This document shows positions 1-5,874 of a DNA stretch of 5,874 nucleotides, piece by piece (the first letter of the stretch is position 1; the number at the start of each line of letters is the position of its first letter). Both the position numbers and the translations under genes were made by a program. A model generated the notes under the pieces. It did not search any database. It saw nothing but the letters and a program-made list of their open reading frames with translations, and had not been told where the DNA came from. Source of the DNA: Myxococcota bacterium (GTDB lineage: Bacteria > Myxococcota > Polyangia > GCA-2747355 > JAKLHH01); the NCBI GenBank assembly GCA_022710245.1, contig JAKLHH010000535.1, positions 1-5,874 of the forward strand, written 5' to 3'.

Positions 1-337
1 GCAGCGACCCGGCGAGAGGCAACGCGCCAGCGTCGAGCACCACCACGGTGAGCTCGCCGCCGGGCCGGATCGCGCGGAGCAGCGCCTGCGCGTGGTAGCC
101 AGCCCCGAGCCCGAAGCAGACCACCTGCTCTCCCGGACGCAGCCCGAGCCGCACGATCTCCGCCGCCGCGGCCGCCGCCGGAGCGCGCGCGTCGGCGAGC
201 GGCAGCTCGGTCCCGTCGGCGAGCCGGGCGAGGAGGAGCGGCTCACCGCTGCCCGCGATCGCCCGGCGGAGGCCCGCCGCCTCGGAGCGAGCCGGCTCTC
301 CGGGGAGGGCCGCTCGCGGCGGGCGCAGCGACTCCAT
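1..337 (-). CDS. MAF/MptE-like (DUF115) protein, N-terminal part, cut by window edge
   Basis: The first 112 codons of a leftward gene are visible; the rest lies beyond base 1. The ATG at 337-335 follows the TGA of the upstream mutase-like gene after one base, so translation is probably coupled; only a weak GAG lies ahead of it. The first ~60 residues are Ala/Arg/Pro-rich. Residues 72-104 form a Rossmann-like strand-loop-helix-strand, with GLGAGYH at 76-82, a helix AQALLRAI, then a hydrophobic strand ending in LDAG. This resembles the GLGxGYH motif near the N-terminus of motility-associated-factor (MAF) proteins, which carry a DUF115/MptE-like domain and are implicated in glycosylating flagellin with nonulosonic acids. 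The DUF115 core itself would lie outside the window, so the family call rests on this motif and on the DUF115 domain in the same operon. A small Rossmann-fold methyltransferase is the main alternative. Confidence 0.65.
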   Translation of the reverse strand, partial: MESLRPPRAALPGEPARSEAAGLRRAIAGSGEPLLLARLADGTELPLADARAPAAAAAAEIVRLGLRPGEQVVCFGLGAGYHAQALLRAIRPGGELTVVVLDAGALPLAGSL

Positions 338-338
338 C

Positions 339-1574
339 TCAGCTCAGCTTCTCGCGCAGCAGGCGCAGGAGCACACGCTTGCGGGCGGGGTCGCCGCTCG
401 TCAGCTCGTCCAGGTGCTCGGCGACGATCATCGCCATCCGGATGCAGGTGTCCTTGGAGCAGTAGGCGTGGACGCCGAGGCGGCCGATCGGCACGACCCG
501 GCTCTGCGCCGCGCGCTCGAGCTGCCGCTCGACGAGCTCCAGGTTGCGGCGCGTGCTGACGGGGTAGACGTTCTCCTTGGCGCAGACCCAGCTCTCGAGG
601 AGCGGCCGGCGGAGCACACCCCGGCAGAAGGCCTCGACCTCGGCGCGCCACGCCCGCTCGTCCGGCTGGCCGCGCCAGGGGAACTCGAAGTCGAGGAGCG
701 AGACCTCCGCGTCGACGTGGTACTGCTGGCGGAACTCGACGATGCGGGTGAAGGAGTAGTTGTTGGGGAAGGAGGTCGCGTAGGACGGCATCACGTAGCC
801 GGAGGACGCCACCGCGCCGTAGATGATCGTGGTGTTGATGAAGTCGAGCTCGCCGGAGAGCGGGAGCGTGCTCAGCACCAGGTCCGCCTCCACCGGGTCG
901 CCGTCGACGGTCACGCGCTGAAAGTCCTCGGAGACGGCGGCGGTGCCGCGCACCACGCGCGCGCCGCGGGTCATGCCCTCCCAGAGCGGGTTGTAGTCGC
1001 CCGGGTGCCCCTGCCAGCGGCCGCGGAACATGTCCGGCTTCTCGCGCAGGGTCAGCGTGCGGAAGCGCGCCCACTCGCAGTCCATGTCGCGCGGGTGGAT
1101 CTTCCACTGCTTCAGGTTGTAGTTCTTGACGTAGGTCTCGTAGAGGGTCCACCCCATGCGGCTGACGACGTAGCTCTCGAAGTTGGAGAGGTCGGGCTGG
1201 TCGAGGTTGAGGTGGTAGACCTCGTAGATGGCGCGCTCCGGGTGCGGCAGCTTGAGGATGTTCGAGACGGTCACCGGGAAGTCGTGCGGGTCGTCGAGGG
1301 TCCCGTCCACCGAGAGCGCCGGGTGGTACTCGCGATCGGGCGTCGGCGGTGGCGTCTGCCTCAGGTACTCCTCGAAGACCCGCTGCAGCCGCGGCTCGTC
1401 GGTGTACATGATCTGGGGCCCGAACTCGTAGGGGATGCCCGCGTAGCGCTCGGTCCGCGCGCAGCCGCCGAGCTCGCCCTGCTCGACCACCGTCACGTCG
1501 TCCACCCCGCGCCGCAGGAGCTGCTGGGCCGCCGCGCAGCCGGCCGGCCCTCCGCCGAGGATGATCACCTTCAT
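339..1574 (-). CDS. UDP-galactopyranose mutase-like FAD-dependent protein (divergent)
   Basis: This is a 411-residue protein. The dinucleotide-binding motif GGGPAG (7-12) ends a beta strand, the acidic residue E31 closes the second strand, and GG follows at 36-37: a classical FAD-binding start. Downstream it tracks UDP-galactopyranose mutase (Glf), the flavoenzyme that converts UDP-Galp to UDP-Galf. It has an LY-x4-K-x-Y-x2-KQW block at 144-157, a WQGHP block at 187-191 like the family's YQGIP, FTRIVE like YTRIIE, VYPV like YYPV, and GRL at 364-366 with a tyrosine at 371. Length is slightly above the usual ~370-400. Several residues that are active-site or near-invariant in Glf appear changed (see findings), so the substrate and even the isomerase activity are uncertain. 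It is probably cytoplasmic, with no signal peptide or membrane segment. The start is secure: GGAGG lies 4 bases upstream, and the ATG overlaps the preceding stop as ATGA, indicating translational coupling. Confidence 0.83.
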   Translation of the reverse strand: MKVIILGGGPAGCAAAQQLLRRGVDDVTVVEQGELGGCARTERYAGIPYEFGPQIMYTDEPRLQRVFEEYLRQTPPPTPDREYHPALSVDGTLDDPHDFPVTVSNILKLPHPERAIYEVYHLNLDQPDLSNFESYVVSRMGWTLYETYVKNYNLKQWKIHPRDMDCEWARFRTLTLREKPDMFRGRWQGHPGDYNPLWEGMTRGARVVRGTAAVSEDFQRVTVDGDPVEADLVLSTLPLSGELDFINTTIIYGAVASSGYVMPSYATSFPNNYSFTRIVEFRQQYHVDAEVSLLDFEFPWRGQPDERAWRAEVEAFCRGVLRRPLLESWVCAKENVYPVSTRRNLELVERQLERAAQSRVVPIGRLGVHAYCSKDTCIRMAMIVAEHLDELTSGDPARKRVLLRLLREKLS

Positions 1575-3907
1575 GCAGCCTCCTCACCGGCCGCGCCGGT
1601 CGCGCCGCTCGCGGCGTCCTCTCGCCCGCGCAGCAGCGACTCCACCGCCGCCTCCAGCTCGTCGGTCGTGTTGTCGCGCAGCTCCGTCTGCCCCGGGATC
1701 GCGTGCCAGCGCGTGCCGCGGAAGAGCTGCACGCCCTCCTCGGCGCTGAGCTCGCGCCCCCGGAGGAGCAGCGTCTTGTTGAGCACCAGGTGCCCCGGCT
1801 CCCAGGGGAACCAGTGGCGCTGGGCGCCGAGCGCCGGCTGCCCGTGGCAGGAGTTCGAGAGCACCGTGGGCGTGCCGAGCGCGACGCCGATCGGCCAGAC
1901 CCCGGAGTCCGTCGCGACGAGCACGGTCGCCCGGTGGATCAGGCAGAGATCGTCGAGCAGCCGCTGGCCCGGCCGGTGCGCGGCGTCGAAGAGGCCCGGC
2001 AGCGTCGGGAACGGCGTCCCCGCCGCGTCGCCGATCCGGATCACCTTGAAGCCGCGCGCGAGGTAGCGCCGCGCCAGCTCGACGAAGGGCTCCACGGCGA
2101 CGAAGCGCTCCGGCTCGTGCGTCGCCGGGCAGAAGACATAGCCGGGCTCTCGCACGTGCAGCGCGAGGACGCCATCGTCAGGACCGATGCCGTGCGCCGC
2201 GAGCACCGGCGCGAGCGAGGCCGCGTGCGCCTCGGGGACGCGCAGCCGGGCCCGCTCGGTGTTCTCGATCAGATAGTTCCAGGGGCGCCCGAACGTCGCG
2301 TCGAGGAGGCGCGTGCCGGCAGGCAGCGTGGCCAGCGGCGCCGCCTCGTCGAGGTGGGGGTTGCAGGCGATCAGGTCCTGGTGGAAGGCGATCGACGGAT
2401 CAAAGGCGAGCCCGATCCGCCGCCCGGTGCGCAGCTTGTGCTTGGCGATGGCCACGTGGTCGACCACCGAGTTGCCGAGCGCGGTGGGGATGAAGAGACG
2501 GAACCAGTCGATCGGGCTCTGTGCGTGCATCTTCTGCTGCCTCGCTGCGCTGGTCGTGGTCGGCGCCTGCTCCTCGCGCCCGCCCCCTCGCGCGCCTGCT
2601 CCCTGCCCGTGAGCCGCGAGGGCGCCCTGCGCCTCGCGGTCGCGCTCGGCGAGCACCTCCCGCGCCGCTCGCTCGAGCGTGGCGAGGTCCTGCGCCTCGC
2701 CCCCGGTCAGCCGCGCGCGCAGCCGCGAGAGGCCGGGGCGGCGGGCGGCGCGACCGGCCGCCAGCCCCTCGGCGAGCGCCGCGCGAAACGGCGCCGGGCG
2801 GTCGAGGCCGGCGAGGATGCTCGCCAGCGGCGCCTGGTGAAAGCCGTCGATCCGGGCGCCCCCCTCGCTGCAGTTGAAGAGCCTCCGGCGGTGTCCGAGG
2901 GCGCACGCGCGCTCCTCGAACCAGCGGCGGTGCTCCTCCAGGTCAAGCGAGGTGAGGACGGTGCCGCCGTGGTAGCCCGGCGCGAGGAGCGCACCCACGC
3001 GCTCTGCGCCGGCCTGGCCGGCGCCGTCGGCGTAGGGTCGCGCGCCGACGGCCAGGTCGTGGCCCACCAGGATCAGCGGGTCGCAGCCCAGGCGGACGGC
3101 GAGGCTGAAGGCGCAGGTGGCGACCGAGCCGCCGTTCTCGAGGCGCAGGCGAACGCCGGCGAGCGCCTCCAGCCAGTCGACGTAGACGCGGTTGCCCACG
3201 AACACGGCCCGGGGGCCCGGCAGGGCGAGGAGCTCCGGCGGCGCCGCGACCTCGAGCGCGAGGAGCGAGAGCTCCTCCGTGCGGAGCCCGCCGAGGTGGG
3301 CGCGCGGCGTGACCGCGTCCGAGACGACGACCACGTCAGGAGTGATGCCGCGGGCCGCGAGGGCGCCGGCCGAGCGGTTGTTCGCGATCAGCAGCGCCCG
3401 CCCGTCCAGGCGAAGCAGCGTCTGCATCGCGTCGTCCAGCGAGGGTCCTGCCGAGGCGAGGATCGCCGGGCACCCCGCCAGGCAGCCGTCGAGGCTGCTC
3501 GTCGCCGGGAGTTGCTCGAGCGCCTCCAGGTTCTCCGTCAGCTGCCGCGCCCAGGTGGCGCCGTGCGCGGCGCGGGTCCGGCGGGCCAGCGCCTCCCCGC
3601 GGACCGCCCGCACGACGGCGGCGGCCGTGGCCTCGAAGACGGGGCTCGCGATCGCCACGCCCGCGGGCAGGCAGCGGATCCGCTGCGGGAGCGGGTCGGC
3701 GAGGCGCTCCACCATCGCGGCCAGGGCGGCCGCCTCGCCGGCCCCGGGGCAGACGAGCGCGCTGGCTCTGGCCTCCGCGGGCAACGCCTGCAGGACCGGG
3801 CCCGGCTCGGGGCCGACGACGACGATGAGGTCCCCTGCAGCGGGGCTAGCGGGGTTCGCGGGGTTCGCGGGGTTCGCGGGGCTTCCGGTCTGAGGTCGCA
3901 GATCCAC
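1571..3907 (-). CDS. DUF115 (MAF-like) - TIGR04372-type glycosyltransferase fusion protein
   Basis: From the GTG at 3907 this is a 778-residue two-domain protein. Residues 9-23 are a Pro-Ala-Asn/Ser repeat. Residues 26-115 look like a degenerate copy of the MAF N-terminal Rossmann region. Residues ~145-360 are the DUF115/MptE-like core: AGPSLD (153-158), ITPDVVVVSDA, ENGGSVA (257-263), GHDLA (282-286) and the closing NCSEGGARI (345-353). A charged, Ala/Arg/Gly-rich linker spans ~375-459. Residues 460-778 resemble TIGR04372-family putative glycosyltransferases: LALHVRE (581-587), KVIRIGD (621-627), ATDSGVWPIGVALGTPTVLSN (665-685). The likely role is sugar transfer to flagellin or another surface glycan, on the cytoplasmic side. 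It is first in a three-gene operon. In-frame starts upstream (ATG 3937, TTG 3952) are possible, but the GTG has GAGG 7 bases upstream and fits the sigma-54 promoter geometry. An internal ATG at 2530 could give the second domain alone. Confidence 0.8.
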   Translation of the reverse strand: MDLRPQTGSPANPANPANPASPAAGDLIVVVGPEPGPVLQALPAEARASALVCPGAGEAAALAAMVERLADPLPQRIRCLPAGVAIASPVFEATAAAVVRAVRGEALARRTRAAHGATWARQLTENLEALEQLPATSSLDGCLAGCPAILASAGPSLDDAMQTLLRLDGRALLIANNRSAGALAARGITPDVVVVSDAVTPRAHLGGLRTEELSLLALEVAAPPELLALPGPRAVFVGNRVYVDWLEALAGVRLRLENGGSVATCAFSLAVRLGCDPLILVGHDLAVGARPYADGAGQAGAERVGALLAPGYHGGTVLTSLDLEEHRRWFEERACALGHRRRLFNCSEGGARIDGFHQAPLASILAGLDRPAPFRAALAEGLAAGRAARRPGLSRLRARLTGGEAQDLATLERAAREVLAERDREAQGALAAHGQGAGARGGGREEQAPTTTSAARQQKMHAQSPIDWFRLFIPTALGNSVVDHVAIAKHKLRTGRRIGLAFDPSIAFHQDLIACNPHLDEAAPLATLPAGTRLLDATFGRPWNYLIENTERARLRVPEAHAASLAPVLAAHGIGPDDGVLALHVREPGYVFCPATHEPERFVAVEPFVELARRYLARGFKVIRIGDAAGTPFPTLPGLFDAAHRPGQRLLDDLCLIHRATVLVATDSGVWPIGVALGTPTVLSNSCHGQPALGAQRHWFPWEPGHLVLNKTLLLRGRELSAEEGVQLFRGTRWHAIPGQTELRDNTTDELEAAVESLLRGREDAASGATGAAGEEAA
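1579..1583 (-). promoter_or_regulatory. Ribosome-binding site of the mutase-like gene
   Basis: GGAGG on the minus strand lies 4 bases before the ATG at 1574, inside the last codons of the upstream fusion gene. With the ATGA stop/start overlap at 1571-1574 it indicates coupled translation of the two genes. Confidence 0.65.
3842..3886. repeat. In-frame 9-bp tandem repeat near the fusion gene start
   Basis: Five 9-base units lie end to end: GGGGCTAGC, three perfect GGGGTTCGC, then GGGGCTTCC. On the minus strand they encode a Pro-Ala-Asn/Ser-Pro-Ala run at residues 9-23 of the fusion protein. Each unit is three codons, so copy-number change would alter the length of a flexible tail without breaking the frame. 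Confidence 0.85.
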
Positions 3908-3914
3908 GCGGCCA

Positions 3915-3918
3915 CCTC
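3915..3918 (-). promoter_or_regulatory. Ribosome-binding site supporting the GTG start at 3907
   Basis: GAGG on the minus strand lies 7 bases before the GTG at 3907-3905. The alternative starts at 3937 (ATG) and 3952 (TTG) have no comparable purine-rich site. If transcription starts at ~3909 as the promoter match predicts, this site would not be in the mRNA, so the two lines of evidence agree on the start codon but conflict on mechanism. Confidence 0.4.
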
Positions 3919-3919
3919 G

Positions 3920-3935
3920 AGCAAGCCGCGTGCCC
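3920..3935 (-). promoter_or_regulatory. Candidate sigma-54 (-24/-12) promoter of the leftward glycan operon
   Basis: Read on the minus strand the sequence is GGGCACGCGGCTTGCT. It matches the sigma-54 core TGGCACG-N4-TTGCW except for the first T, with -24 GG and -12 GC correctly spaced. The predicted start is near 3909, two bases before the GTG at 3907. It mirrors the promoter of the divergent radical SAM gene in sequence and in distance to the start codon. If real, the upstream in-frame ATG (3937) and TTG (3952) are not translation starts. Confidence 0.57.
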
Positions 3936-4010
3936 ATCGATCGCCCGTCCAAGCCCGCGGGAGCCGTGGGGCCGCCGCCCGCCTCCCGCCAGCCCCCCGT
4001 CGCCGAGGGC

Positions 4011-4035
4011 GCCAGCGCGTTGACAGCGCGTTGGC
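4011..4035. promoter_or_regulatory. Imperfect 25-bp palindrome, candidate activator-binding site
   Basis: Around a central A at 4023, 10 of 12 base pairs are complementary; the failures are at 4015/4031 and 4020/4026. The centre lies ~89 bp upstream of the predicted rightward start (4112) and ~114 bp upstream of the predicted leftward start (3909). That is the usual range for enhancer-binding proteins that activate sigma-54 promoters. No specific regulator can be named. Confidence 0.4.
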
Positions 4036-4038
4036 AGC
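4017..4038. repeat. Two tandem 11-bp direct repeats overlapping the palindrome
   Basis: GCGTTGACAGC (4017-4027) is followed directly by GCGTTGGCAGC (4028-4038), identical at 10 of 11 positions. The 11-bp period is about one DNA helical turn, so both copies face the same side, as expected for a tandem protein-binding site. Confidence 0.55.
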
Positions 4039-4060
4039 GGGGAGCCGAGAGCCCGCGATC

Positions 4061-4078
4061 ACAGCCTCCACAGCCTCG
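4061..4078. repeat. Two tandem 9-bp repeats in the divergent intergenic region
   Basis: ACAGCCTCC and ACAGCCTCG lie side by side and match at 8 of 9 positions. They sit just upstream of the rightward promoter match. They may be a second protein-binding site or simple replication slippage. Confidence 0.4.
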
Positions 4079-4085
4079 ATCCTCG

Positions 4086-4101
4086 TGGCACGCGCGTTGC
4101 T
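4086..4101 (+). promoter_or_regulatory. Candidate sigma-54 (-24/-12) promoter of the radical SAM gene
   Basis: The sequence TGGCACGCGCGTTGCT matches the established sigma-54 core TGGCACG-N4-TTGCW at every specified position. The -24 GG (4087-4088) and -12 GC (4099-4100) dinucleotides are correctly spaced. The start site would be near 4112, only two bases before the ATG. That is unusually close, and it would leave the GGAG at 4106-4109 untranscribed, so the exact start or the sigma factor remains open. Confidence 0.6.
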
Positions 4102-4113
4102 CGACGGAGCCCC

Positions 4114-5724
4114 ATGCGCGTCCTCCTCGTCTGGCCGAACAAGGAGCAGCCCGGCTCCAAGCCCAACAGCCTCTCCCTGCTGGCGGCCCTGCTCCGCCGC
4201 GCTGGCCACCAGGTGCAGCTCCTCGACACGACCTTCGTCGACCTCGGCTTCGAGGACGCGACCCGCGTCGGGACCCGCGCCCGCATCTTCAAGCCGGTGG
4301 ACTTCAGCGGGCTGGCGATGGAGAAGCAGCGGATCGACCTCGACGCGCTGGTCGATGACGTGCTCCGCGAGCTGCGCCCGGATCTGGTCGCCGTCAGCGC
4401 CCTCTCCGACGAGGTGCCCGTCGGGCTGCGCATCGCGCGACGCGTGAAGGCGCGCCAGCCGGACCTGCCGGTCGTCTGGGGCAACAAGGCCGCCACGCTG
4501 GCGCCGGGGCCGCTCCTCGCCAGCGGCGTGGTGGACTGGGCCTGTGTCGGCGAGGGGATCGCCTTCCTCCCCGAGCTGCTCCGCCGCCTCGAGCACGGCC
4601 GCCCCGTCGACGACCTGCCGAACCTCGCCTGGCGCGACGCCGCCGGCGGGCTGCACGTCAACCCGCTCCTGCCCTACCACGCGGACCTCGACGCGCTGCC
4701 GGTCTTCGACTACTCGATCTACGATCCGCGCCAGCTCCTGAAGCCCTTCGACGGGCGCGCCTACCGCGGCGGCGATCACATGATCGGCTGGGGCTGCCCG
4801 AACCGCTGCACCTACTGCATCAACGACAGCCTGCGCGCGCTCTACGGGCCGAAGGCGGGGCCCCTGCGCCGCTACTCGGTGCCGCGGATCGTGGCCGAGC
4901 TCCGCGAGCTCGCCGAGCGCTGGGGCCTCGAGCTCTACAAGTTCCACGACGAGGACTTCTGCCAGAAGCCGGTCTCGTACCTGCGCGAGCTGGCGCGCGA
5001 GTACCGGCGACAGGTGAGGCTCCCCTTCACCGCGATGGCCAACGCGCGCACGGTGACGCCGGAGAAGGCCGAGCTCCTCGCCAGCATGGGCTGCGCCAGC
5101 GTCAGCCTCGGCTTCGAGTCGGGCAACCTCTGGCTGCGGCGCGAGGTGCTGCACCGCGCGGAGACGCCGGAGCAGATCATCGCGGCGACGCGCCTCCTCA
5201 CCGGCTGCGGCATCCGGACCAGCTCCTTCAACATGCTGGGGCTCCCCTTCGAGACCCGCGCGACGATCATGGAGACGGTGGAGCTGAACCGGGCGGCGGA
5301 GGTCACCTCGCCGAACGCGAACTTCTTCTTCCCCTACGCGGGGAGCGAGCTGCACCGCATCTCCGTCGAGCACGGCTTCTTCACGCCGGACGAGACCGCC
5401 GTCTACCGCAGCGATCGCCCCACCCTGACCCTGCCGGGGATCAGCGCCGGGGAGCTGATCGCGCTCAGGGAGCGCTTCGCGCTCTACGTGAAGCTGCCTC
5501 GCGCCCTCTGGCCCTACCTGCGCCGCTCGGAGCGCGCCGACGAGGTGGGCGCCGCCCTCACCGCCGAGCTCTACCGGCTCTACGACGAGGTGGTGCTCTC
5601 CGGCGACGGCAGCTGGCCGGAGCAGGTCGATCTGGCCCAGGTCACGCGCCGCCTGGAGCTCGCTCGCGCCCGCGCCGGCTCGAGGCCCCCCCTCTCCTTC
5701 GACCTCCCCCCGGTCAGCGCCTGA
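4114..5724 (+). CDS. B12-binding-domain radical SAM protein
   Basis: This is a 536-residue protein. Residues 1-~165 have a cobalamin-binding-type Rossmann domain: the start MRVLLVWPN, a hydrophobic strand LVAVSAL (91-97), PVVWGNKAA (119-127) and VDWACVGEG (140-148), typical of class B radical SAM enzymes. The [4Fe-4S]/SAM motif CxxxCxxC is C228-C232-C235, inside GWGCPNRCTYC. The barrel continues with FHDEDF (278-282), SLGFESGN (331-338), MLGLPFE (374-380) and FFPYAGSELH (405-414), as expected for the family. The C-terminal ~100 residues are unassigned. Such enzymes methylate unactivated carbon or phosphorus centres or rearrange carbon skeletons; the substrate cannot be read from sequence. The divergent glycan operon suggests a sugar, lipid carrier or modified amino acid (inference). 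The ATG is the natural family start, with GGAG 4 bases upstream; no earlier start is needed. It is probably controlled by the sigma-54-like promoter at 4086-4101. Confidence 0.9.
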   Translation: MRVLLVWPNKEQPGSKPNSLSLLAALLRRAGHQVQLLDTTFVDLGFEDATRVGTRARIFKPVDFSGLAMEKQRIDLDALVDDVLRELRPDLVAVSALSDEVPVGLRIARRVKARQPDLPVVWGNKAATLAPGPLLASGVVDWACVGEGIAFLPELLRRLEHGRPVDDLPNLAWRDAAGGLHVNPLLPYHADLDALPVFDYSIYDPRQLLKPFDGRAYRGGDHMIGWGCPNRCTYCINDSLRALYGPKAGPLRRYSVPRIVAELRELAERWGLELYKFHDEDFCQKPVSYLRELAREYRRQVRLPFTAMANARTVTPEKAELLASMGCASVSLGFESGNLWLRREVLHRAETPEQIIAATRLLTGCGIRTSSFNMLGLPFETRATIMETVELNRAAEVTSPNANFFFPYAGSELHRISVEHGFFTPDETAVYRSDRPTLTLPGISAGELIALRERFALYVKLPRALWPYLRRSERADEVGAALTAELYRLYDEVVLSGDGSWPEQVDLAQVTRRLELARARAGSRPPLSFDLPPVSA

Positions 5725-5874
5725 CAGCCCTCAGGTCAACGCGATCAACGCGATCAACGCTCCCCCCCCGTCGAAGCCTCGACAGAGCCCTCCGACGCCG
5801 TGACGCTCGGACCGCTCCCCGAAGGACCCTCGGCGAGCGCCAGGAGCGACCGCTCCGCCCGAACGCTCAACGCT
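5725..5874. other. Non-coding stretch after the radical SAM gene
   Basis: No plausible gene is seen on either strand. Besides the 9-bp repeats it holds a 5-bp inverted repeat with 6-base loop (5720-5735), GTCGA/TCGAC with a 4-base loop (5770-5783), and GGAGCG/CGCTCC (5843-5856). All lack a T-run, so none is a convincing intrinsic terminator. A promoter for a gene beyond the window was not recognised. Confidence 0.5.
5734..5760. repeat. Three tandem 9-bp repeats after the radical SAM gene
   Basis: GGTCAACGC is followed by two perfect GATCAACGC units, starting ten bases after the stop codon. A further TCAACGCT, matching the end of the array (5754-5761), occurs at 5867-5874. The array is non-coding. 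It is too short for CRISPR and has no spacers. Confidence 0.75.

What the first reader, a model, noticed from the sequence alone, without database searches (positions are those of the whole stretch)
3905..4116. Mirror-image sigma-54-type promoters with identical spacing to two divergent start codons
The minus-strand block 3935-3905 and the plus-strand block 4086-4116 match at 23 of 31 positions when aligned from promoter to start codon. Each contains a TGGCACG-N4-TTGCW-type match (one perfect, one with the first T changed to G), then the shared bases CGA, and exactly 12 bases between the match and the start codon (ATG or GTG). Such long matches are rarely expected by chance in under 6 kb, and here both sit at the starts of two divergent units. 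This suggests coordinated sigma-54 control of the glycan operon and the radical SAM gene.
Basis: partly seen in the sequence, partly recalled or inferred. Interest (0 to 1): 0.75.

Follow-up and report, generated by a model that had tools for sequence, protein, structure and literature searches.

The report
Two sigma-54-like sites at divergent starts
Two DNA stretches beside the starts of two oppositely oriented genes match the binding consensus of an alternative RNA polymerase factor far better than chance, but only one of them sits where it could plausibly act as that gene's promoter, and the apparent mirror-image design is probably a coincidence.

Summary
The two 31-mers match at 23 of 31 positions; the plus site fits TGGCACG-N4-TTGCW at 12 of 12 positions, the minus site at 11 of 12, each 12 bases from a start codon. 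Composition does not explain this: a window like this should hold 0.0004-0.0009 exact and 0.024-0.036 near (11+ of 12) sites; five large plasmid records (9.56 Mb) hold 0 exact and 66 one-mismatch sites.

By -24/-12 geometry both transcripts would begin 2 nt before the start codon. For the plus gene (B12-binding radical SAM) this is conceivable: its ATG is fixed by homologs (18 of 20 aligned proteins, its own included, start within one residue) and it has no clear Shine-Dalgarno. For the minus gene (MptE-like/TIGR04372 glycosyltransferase) it is not: the GTG has a strong Shine-Dalgarno (-10.7 kcal/mol) upstream of the predicted transcript start, and GTG suits leaderless translation poorly. The shared CGA is uninformative. 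No host genome is held, so rpoN, activators and conservation are untested.

Verdict: one probable sigma-54 promoter or binding site; the mirror-image pair is not established.

The parts
4086..4101 (+). sigma-54 -24/-12-type match TGGCACG-CGCG-TTGCT, 12 of 12 consensus positions; GG at 4087-4088, GC at 4099-4100
   Evidence: 0 exact matches in 9.56 Mb of comparison DNA
4112..4113 (+). predicted two-base leader if +1 lies 12 nt after the C at -12 (inferred, not mapped)
   Evidence: inference from the -24/-12 rule (general knowledge; rule stated in a passage of PMC4842269)
4114..5724 (+). B12-binding domain radical SAM protein, 536 aa, ATG start fixed by homologs
   Evidence: start within one residue in 18 of 20 aligned sequences, the window's own included
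3920..3935 (-). sigma-54-like match GGGCACG-CGGC-TTGCT, 11 of 12; probably not the promoter of the minus operon
3913..3918 (-). Shine-Dalgarno GAGGTG ahead of GTG 3907, lying between the -12 element and the predicted +1 (3909)
   Evidence: duplex with anti-SD -10.7 kcal/mol; 7.6% of background 20-mers are at -9 or below
1571..3907 (-). MptE-like (PF01973) plus TIGR04372 glycosyltransferase gene, GTG start preferred; ATG 3937-3935 is the main alternative
3908..4113 (.). divergent intergenic region, 206 bp, 77% GC, holding both sites
   Evidence: no sigma-70-type match at 3800-4200, but shuffles also give none, so that absence carries no weight
339..1574 (-). FAD/NAD-binding protein resembling UDP-galactopyranose mutase, directly downstream of the MptE-like gene, strong SD
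2..337 (-). start of a further gene, cut by the window end; no family over its cut-off (weak Maf N-terminal resemblance, E 0.15)

Best explanation
The plus-strand site is a genuine sigma-54-type -24/-12 element. It recruits sigma-54 RNA polymerase, which an unidentified enhancer-binding protein then activates, to transcribe the divergent radical SAM gene; the message begins about two bases before the ATG, so translation would be near-leaderless. The minus-strand site is a weaker look-alike that overlaps the ribosome-binding region of the glycan operon. That operon is read from a promoter further upstream in the intergenic region and translated from GTG 3907 by ordinary Shine-Dalgarno pairing. 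Shown: sequence matches, their rarity, start-codon placement of the radical SAM gene, Shine-Dalgarno asymmetry. Inferred: sigma-54 binding, start sites, activator, the upstream promoter.
For: 12/12 and 11/12 matches, the only two sites of 10+ in the window; expected exact matches 0.0004-0.0009 per window; 0 exact in 9.56 Mb of five plasmid records. The plus site is oriented towards, and immediately upstream of, a gene whose start is shared within one residue by 18 of 20 aligned proteins, its own included. The plus gene has only a weak SD (-5.8 kcal/mol) whereas GTG 3907 (-10.7) and ATG 1574 (-11.5) have strong ones, so only the plus gene tolerates loss of its leader. In 387 genomes of one phylum the consensus 4-34 nt before an ATG occurs in 196, against 39 for the reversed control (hand count's table). 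Of seven downstream ORFs that I picked from the 30 loci held, two are typical sigma-54 targets by general knowledge (glutamine synthetase III, ammonium transporter), four match other families and one none.
Against: A -12 element 12 nt from a firm start codon is unusual. At L057 (glutamine synthetase III) an ATG 12 nt after the site is followed by another Met 15 codons on, just before the conserved domain, so the true start is probably downstream there. Only one neighbourhood of a relative was inspected (L001, 43%): there the gene follows a same-strand ORF, has a GGAAGG ahead of its ATG by eye, and no site above 10. The host is unknown, so rpoN is not shown. GGAG at 4106-4109 could be a weak SD, which the predicted transcript would lack. 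No enhancer site could be named. The first-stage reader chose this motif after seeing the sequence.
Confidence: 0.42

Rival explanations
1. Both sites are chance or compositional look-alikes; both units are transcribed from undetected promoters in the 206-bp intergenic region and translated from leadered messages.
For: No host rpoN shown (no genome held). Strong SD at GTG 3907, and GGAG before ATG 4114, would be excluded from sigma-54 transcripts. Many motifs could have been noticed in many windows. PMC3162934 reports no clear difference in the number of look-alike sites between genomes with and without sigma-54 (passage).
Against: Expected 0.0004-0.0009 exact and 0.024-0.036 near matches per window, and rates in real DNA agree. 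The location at gene starts, in the right orientation, lowers the odds further.
Confidence: 0.3
2. One reading: both sites are functional sigma-54 promoters that co-activate the two divergent units as near-leaderless messages, with a shared enhancer between them.
For: 23/31 match and equal 12-nt spacing; both sites above chance. sigma-54 is associated with exopolysaccharide, LPS and flagellar genes (PMC3162934, abstract).
Against: The minus gene's strong SD (-10.7 kcal/mol) lies upstream of the predicted +1 and its start is GTG, unsuited to leaderless translation (PMC3616915 passage). The repeats and dyads between the sites were not tested against chance by any search and resemble no enhancer that I could name.
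Confidence: 0.16
3. The two blocks are operators or RNA control elements rather than promoters: a protein bound over both ribosome sites, or start-codon hairpins (ACGCG arm pairing with the start region) in leadered transcripts.
For: 8-bp perfect arms CACGCGGC/GCCGCGTG around the minus SD and start; in the short folds of both strands the start codon is paired with the ACGCG part of the block.
Against: Fold energies are not exceptional: z -0.01 for minus 3890-3945 and -1.56 for plus 4070-4135 (80 and 14 of 200 shuffles fold as well); the longer stretches give z 0.67 and 0.93.
Confidence: 0.08
4. sigma-54 holoenzyme binds one or both sites without starting transcription and blocks or tunes transcription from upstream promoters.
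For: Intragenic sigma-54 sites are common: 41 of 70 predicted sites in Salmonella lay within the enriched ORF, and that paper discusses non-promoter roles (PMC3844500, passages). This would fit the minus site, which lies directly upstream of and next to the SD.
Against: No direct evidence here; the plus site is correctly placed upstream of a gene.
Confidence: 0.04

Closest known systems
sigma-54 (RpoN) -24/-12 promoters, consensus TGGCACG-N4-TTGCW (Barrios et al. 1999, letters recalled; cited as a matrix of 186 promoters in PMC5243855, passage)
   Same: GG and GC elements and their spacing; plus site 12/12, minus site 11/12; the base three after the match is A in both, as in the extended consensus (recalled)
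   Different: The sites abut start codons so that only about 2 nt of leader would remain; no activator, enhancer or rpoN is known for this host
Leaderless mRNAs in rhizobia (171 in S. meliloti, PMC3616915; 320 TSS at 0-10 nt from starts in B. japonicum, PMC4842269; passages seen)
   Same: Predicted plus transcript would start 2 nt before an ATG and lacks a strong SD
   Different: The motif reported for B. japonicum leaderless messages is an extended -10 box (TGnTA), not -24/-12; a GTG start, as on the minus strand, does not fit
sigma-54 control of surface glycan and motility genes (PMC3162934, abstract and passages)
   Same: One flanking unit encodes glycosyltransferase-like, MptE-like and UDP-galactopyranose mutase-like proteins
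   Different: The site with the better fit serves the radical SAM gene; the glycan operon's own site is doubtful

Membership tests
sigma-54 -24/-12 promoter (plus site 4086-4101) | GG and GC elements with correct spacing and consensus match | tested here: met
   12/12
sigma-54 -24/-12 promoter (plus site 4086-4101) | Oriented towards and upstream of a gene, -50 to 300 nt from translation start | tested here: met
   12 nt before ATG 4114, start shared within one residue by 18 of 20 aligned proteins, its own included; criterion from PMC3162934
sigma-54 -24/-12 promoter (plus site 4086-4101) | Predicted transcript leaves room for translation initiation | tested here: inconclusive
   two-base leader predicted; the weak SD (-5.8 kcal/mol) is near background, so near-leaderless initiation would be needed
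sigma-54 -24/-12 promoter (minus site 3935-3920) | GG and GC elements with correct spacing and consensus match | tested here: met
   11/12
sigma-54 -24/-12 promoter (minus site 3935-3920) | Predicted transcript compatible with the gene's translation start | tested here: not met
   strong SD GAGGTG (3918-3913, -10.7 kcal/mol) lies upstream of predicted +1 3909; GTG start. Holds if GTG 3907 is the start, which is likely but not proven
sigma-54 promoters (both) | Host encodes rpoN and an enhancer-binding protein | not testable with these tools
   no whole genome held for the window
sigma-54 promoters (both) | Enhancer (UAS) upstream of the promoter | tested here: inconclusive
   repeat scan of 3895-4130 gives direct repeats CAGCGCGTTGR at 4013-4034 and several dyads, none assignable to a known activator
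sigma-54 promoters (both) | Conservation at homologous loci | tested here: inconclusive
   no locus with the same gene pair reached; L001 (43% identity) has a same-strand gene upstream and no site above 10; of 21 relatives' loci scanned one (L019) has an 11/12 site, inside the matched gene

The most novel reading that the evidence does not exclude
A divergent pair of sigma-54 promoters placed so that both messages start two bases before the start codon, coupling enhancer-dependent transcription to leaderless translation of a B12 radical SAM enzyme and a glycan operon, in a bacterium that otherwise uses strong Shine-Dalgarno sites.
Probability: 0.12. Interest if true: 0.6.

Novelty: new member of a known kind. 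Interest (0 to 1): 0.3.

Why it matters
If the plus site is real, a B12-binding radical SAM enzyme beside a glycan locus is under enhancer-dependent control, and a sigma-54 promoter feeds a near-leaderless message. I saw no described case of that combination in the listings of searches or in the passages, which is a narrow look and not proof of absence. If it is not real, the case shows why a perfect consensus match must be checked against start codons and ribosome-binding sites.

Tried and rejected
Own-genome tests (rpoN presence, genome-wide motif census) were impossible: no genome is held. Homologs of the MptE-like protein: two searches returned only the window's own protein (each scored only about 8,000 candidates), so its start could not be fixed by comparison. 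Relatives of the radical SAM protein: one genome locus (L001, Kiritimatiellae), no viral contig, matches in 134 of 288 sampled genomes of that phylum (best 44%, in L001's own genome, next by E-value 32%) and in 75 plasmid records, all below 60% identity. I inspected gene order only at L001, not in the other genomes or plasmids; for L001 and L003-L022 I scanned only for the motif (1 of 21 loci with 11/12, inside the matched gene). sigma-70-type promoters: none at 3800-4200, but the shuffles gave none either, so this says nothing. Start-codon hairpins: not significantly more stable than shuffles. 'Shared CGA': rejected as evidence. GCGCGTTG repeats at 4015, 4026 and 4092 (spacings 11 and 66) looked suggestive, but the word also occurs at 20 and 5040 on the other strand. 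A 16-bp imperfect dyad at 4021-4036, seen by eye, was dropped because by my own rough estimate, in no call, about two such dyads are expected per 150 bp. Spacing profile of consensus to ATG: not quantified, because the listing is capped and chance ATGs cannot be separated from starts without annotation. Paper searches (no paper) gave listings; passages of PMC4641369 added nothing used here.

Full report
OBSERVATION. The sequence is as described. Minus 3935-3905 and plus 4086-4116 agree at 23 of 31 positions. Against TGGCACG-N4-TTGCW the plus site scores 12 of 12 and the minus site 11 of 12, and these are the only two sites in the window scoring 10 or more. Each ends 12 bases before a start codon (ATG 4114, GTG 3907).

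CHANCE. Dinucleotide shuffles (200) gave a mean of 0.02 sites with at least 11 matches and none with 12. Markov models of order 0 to 3 expect 0.0004-0.0009 exact and 0.024-0.036 near matches in a window like this. As a real-DNA control I searched five large plasmid records (two Streptomycetaceae, Methylobacterium, Eleftheria, Paraburkholderia; 9.56 Mb in all, 1.5-kb samples 53-77% GC; whole-record GC not measured). None of the 5 held an exact match, and together they held 66 one-mismatch matches, which scales to about 0.04 per window, or 0.018 from the two Streptomycetaceae, which by general knowledge lack sigma-54. The reversed control pattern gave 2 exact and 100 one-mismatch matches in the same records, so the consensus is not enriched even in the records from proteobacteria: these are background rates. 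The window's two sites are well above them. The extra similarity between the two blocks is less telling: outside the consensus and the start codon the agreement is modest (10 of 17), the pair ranks first of 35,511 start-anchored pairs with 21/28 while an unrelated pair reaches 20/28, and TTGCT is followed by CGA at all three of its occurrences in the window.

THE GENES. Plus 4114-5724 encodes a B12-binding radical SAM protein (PF02310, PF04055) with no NCBIfam model over its cut-off (best HpnJ at 84.5 bits against 577.6). Its start is firm: in an alignment of the best 20 of 185 hits, the window's own protein included, 18 begin within one residue of ATG 4114; P0007 begins three residues later and P0020 is shorter at the N-terminus. 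Minus 1571-3907 encodes an MptE-like (PF01973) protein fused to a TIGR04372 glycosyltransferase domain, followed by a UDP-galactopyranose mutase-like protein (339-1574) and the start of a further gene. 'Glycan operon' is thus a reasonable label. The minus start is less certain. ATG 3937-3935 would place the sigma-54-like site inside the gene; GTG 3907 has a strong Shine-Dalgarno; the catalogue copy of the protein begins at the TTG at 3784 (P0001). GC at third codon positions is 0.60 over the 20 codons from 3937, 0.75 from 3907 and 0.95 from 3817, against a gene average of 0.95, which speaks mildly against the ATG, and a Rossmann-like stretch (DLIVVVGPEPG, my reading) before 3784 speaks against the TTG. 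I favour GTG 3907.

GEOMETRY. In -24/-12 promoters the C of the GC element is at -12, so transcription would start at about 4112 and 3909, leaving two-base leaders. I compared ribosome-binding strength as duplex energy with the anti-Shine-Dalgarno for seven candidate starts: plus ATG 4114 -5.8 kcal/mol, which is unremarkable (45.7% of background 20-mers are at -5 or below); GTG 3907 -10.7 and ATG 1574 -11.5, both strong (7.6% of background at -9 or below); the other four -2.6 to -6.4. This organism evidently uses Shine-Dalgarno sites for at least some genes. The minus gene's Shine-Dalgarno would lie upstream of the predicted sigma-54 transcript, and GTG is a poor leaderless start: in S. meliloti all 171 leaderless transcripts start with AUG (PMC3616915, passages seen; the study's ORF step defines leaderless ORFs by AUG, which weakens this, but it cites E. 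coli evidence that other starts are inefficient). So the minus site fails a functional requirement that the plus site may pass.

POSITIVE CONTROL. In 387 genomes of the phylum of the one good genome relative, the exact consensus 4-34 nt before an ATG occurs in 196; the pattern read backwards occurs in 39 (hand count of the printed table). I scanned the 30 loci held and passed seven ORFs of my choice to Pfam: glutamine synthetase III (L057) and an ammonium transporter (L034) are textbook sigma-54-type targets (general knowledge); the others are a MoxR-type AAA protein, a transglutaminase-like protein, a PQQ/BamB-type propeller and an Hsp20, and L055 matched nothing. At L057 an ATG lies 12 nt after the site, exactly as here, but a second Met 15 codons on precedes the conserved domain, so the true start is probably downstream. 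That way out is not open for the window's radical SAM gene, whose first residues are conserved. A sigma-54 promoter here would have to be near-leaderless, which is unusual and keeps my confidence moderate.

CONTEXT. PMC3162934 (abstract and passages) reports no clear difference in the number of look-alike sites between genomes with and without sigma-54, but that sites placed and oriented upstream of starts mark organisms with sigma-54, and that associated genes concern the cell exterior. PMC3844500 (passages) reports 41 of 70 predicted sigma-54 sites of Salmonella inside ORFs, so sites inside genes are common. Both bear on the minus site.

WHAT COULD NOT BE TESTED. No genome is held for the window, so rpoN, activators and a genome-wide census are out of reach. 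The closest radical SAM relatives (62-67% identical, P0003-P0006) are known only as proteins. L001 (43%) has the gene downstream of a same-strand ORF, with a GGAAGG ahead of the ATG by eye and no site above 10 of 12. Of the 21 relatives' loci scanned, one (L019) has an 11/12 site, inside the matched gene. I did not inspect gene order in the other genomes and plasmids with weaker matches. Literature searches on leaderless sigma-54 messages listed transcript-mapping papers; I read passages of three (the last searched for sigma-54 terms only) and saw no described case, which is not proof of absence.

VERDICT.

Noticed in passing
window 3851-3881: Tandem 9-base repeat GGGGTTCGC (three copies and a part) that in the minus frame encodes an Ala-Asn-Pro repeat shortly after the preferred start of the MptE-like gene.
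   Followed up: no
window 4013-4034: Direct repeat CAGCGCGTTGA/CAGCGCGTTGG with 11-base period in the middle of the divergent intergenic region, with a third GCGCGTTG 66 bases on inside the plus site; could be a regulator site.
   Followed up: partly
window 3905-3932: Perfect 8-base inverted repeat CACGCGGC/GCCGCGTG enclosing the Shine-Dalgarno, with the GTG start in one arm; folding is not better than shuffles.
   Followed up: yes
window 1571-3907: Fusion of an MptE-like domain with a TIGR04372 glycosyltransferase domain, joined by a low-complexity stretch; two capped protein searches found only the window's own copy.
   Followed up: partly
window 5741-5758: Short tandem repeat GCGATCAAC (two copies) after the radical SAM stop codon.
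   Followed up: no
G313 contig C238 (L051) and G018 contig C9: Other divergent pairs of exact sigma-54 consensus sites, about 395 and 615 bases apart, each site followed within 34 bases by a purine-rich ribosome-site-like stretch (by eye) and an ATG; such pairs occur elsewhere with normal leaders.
   Followed up: no
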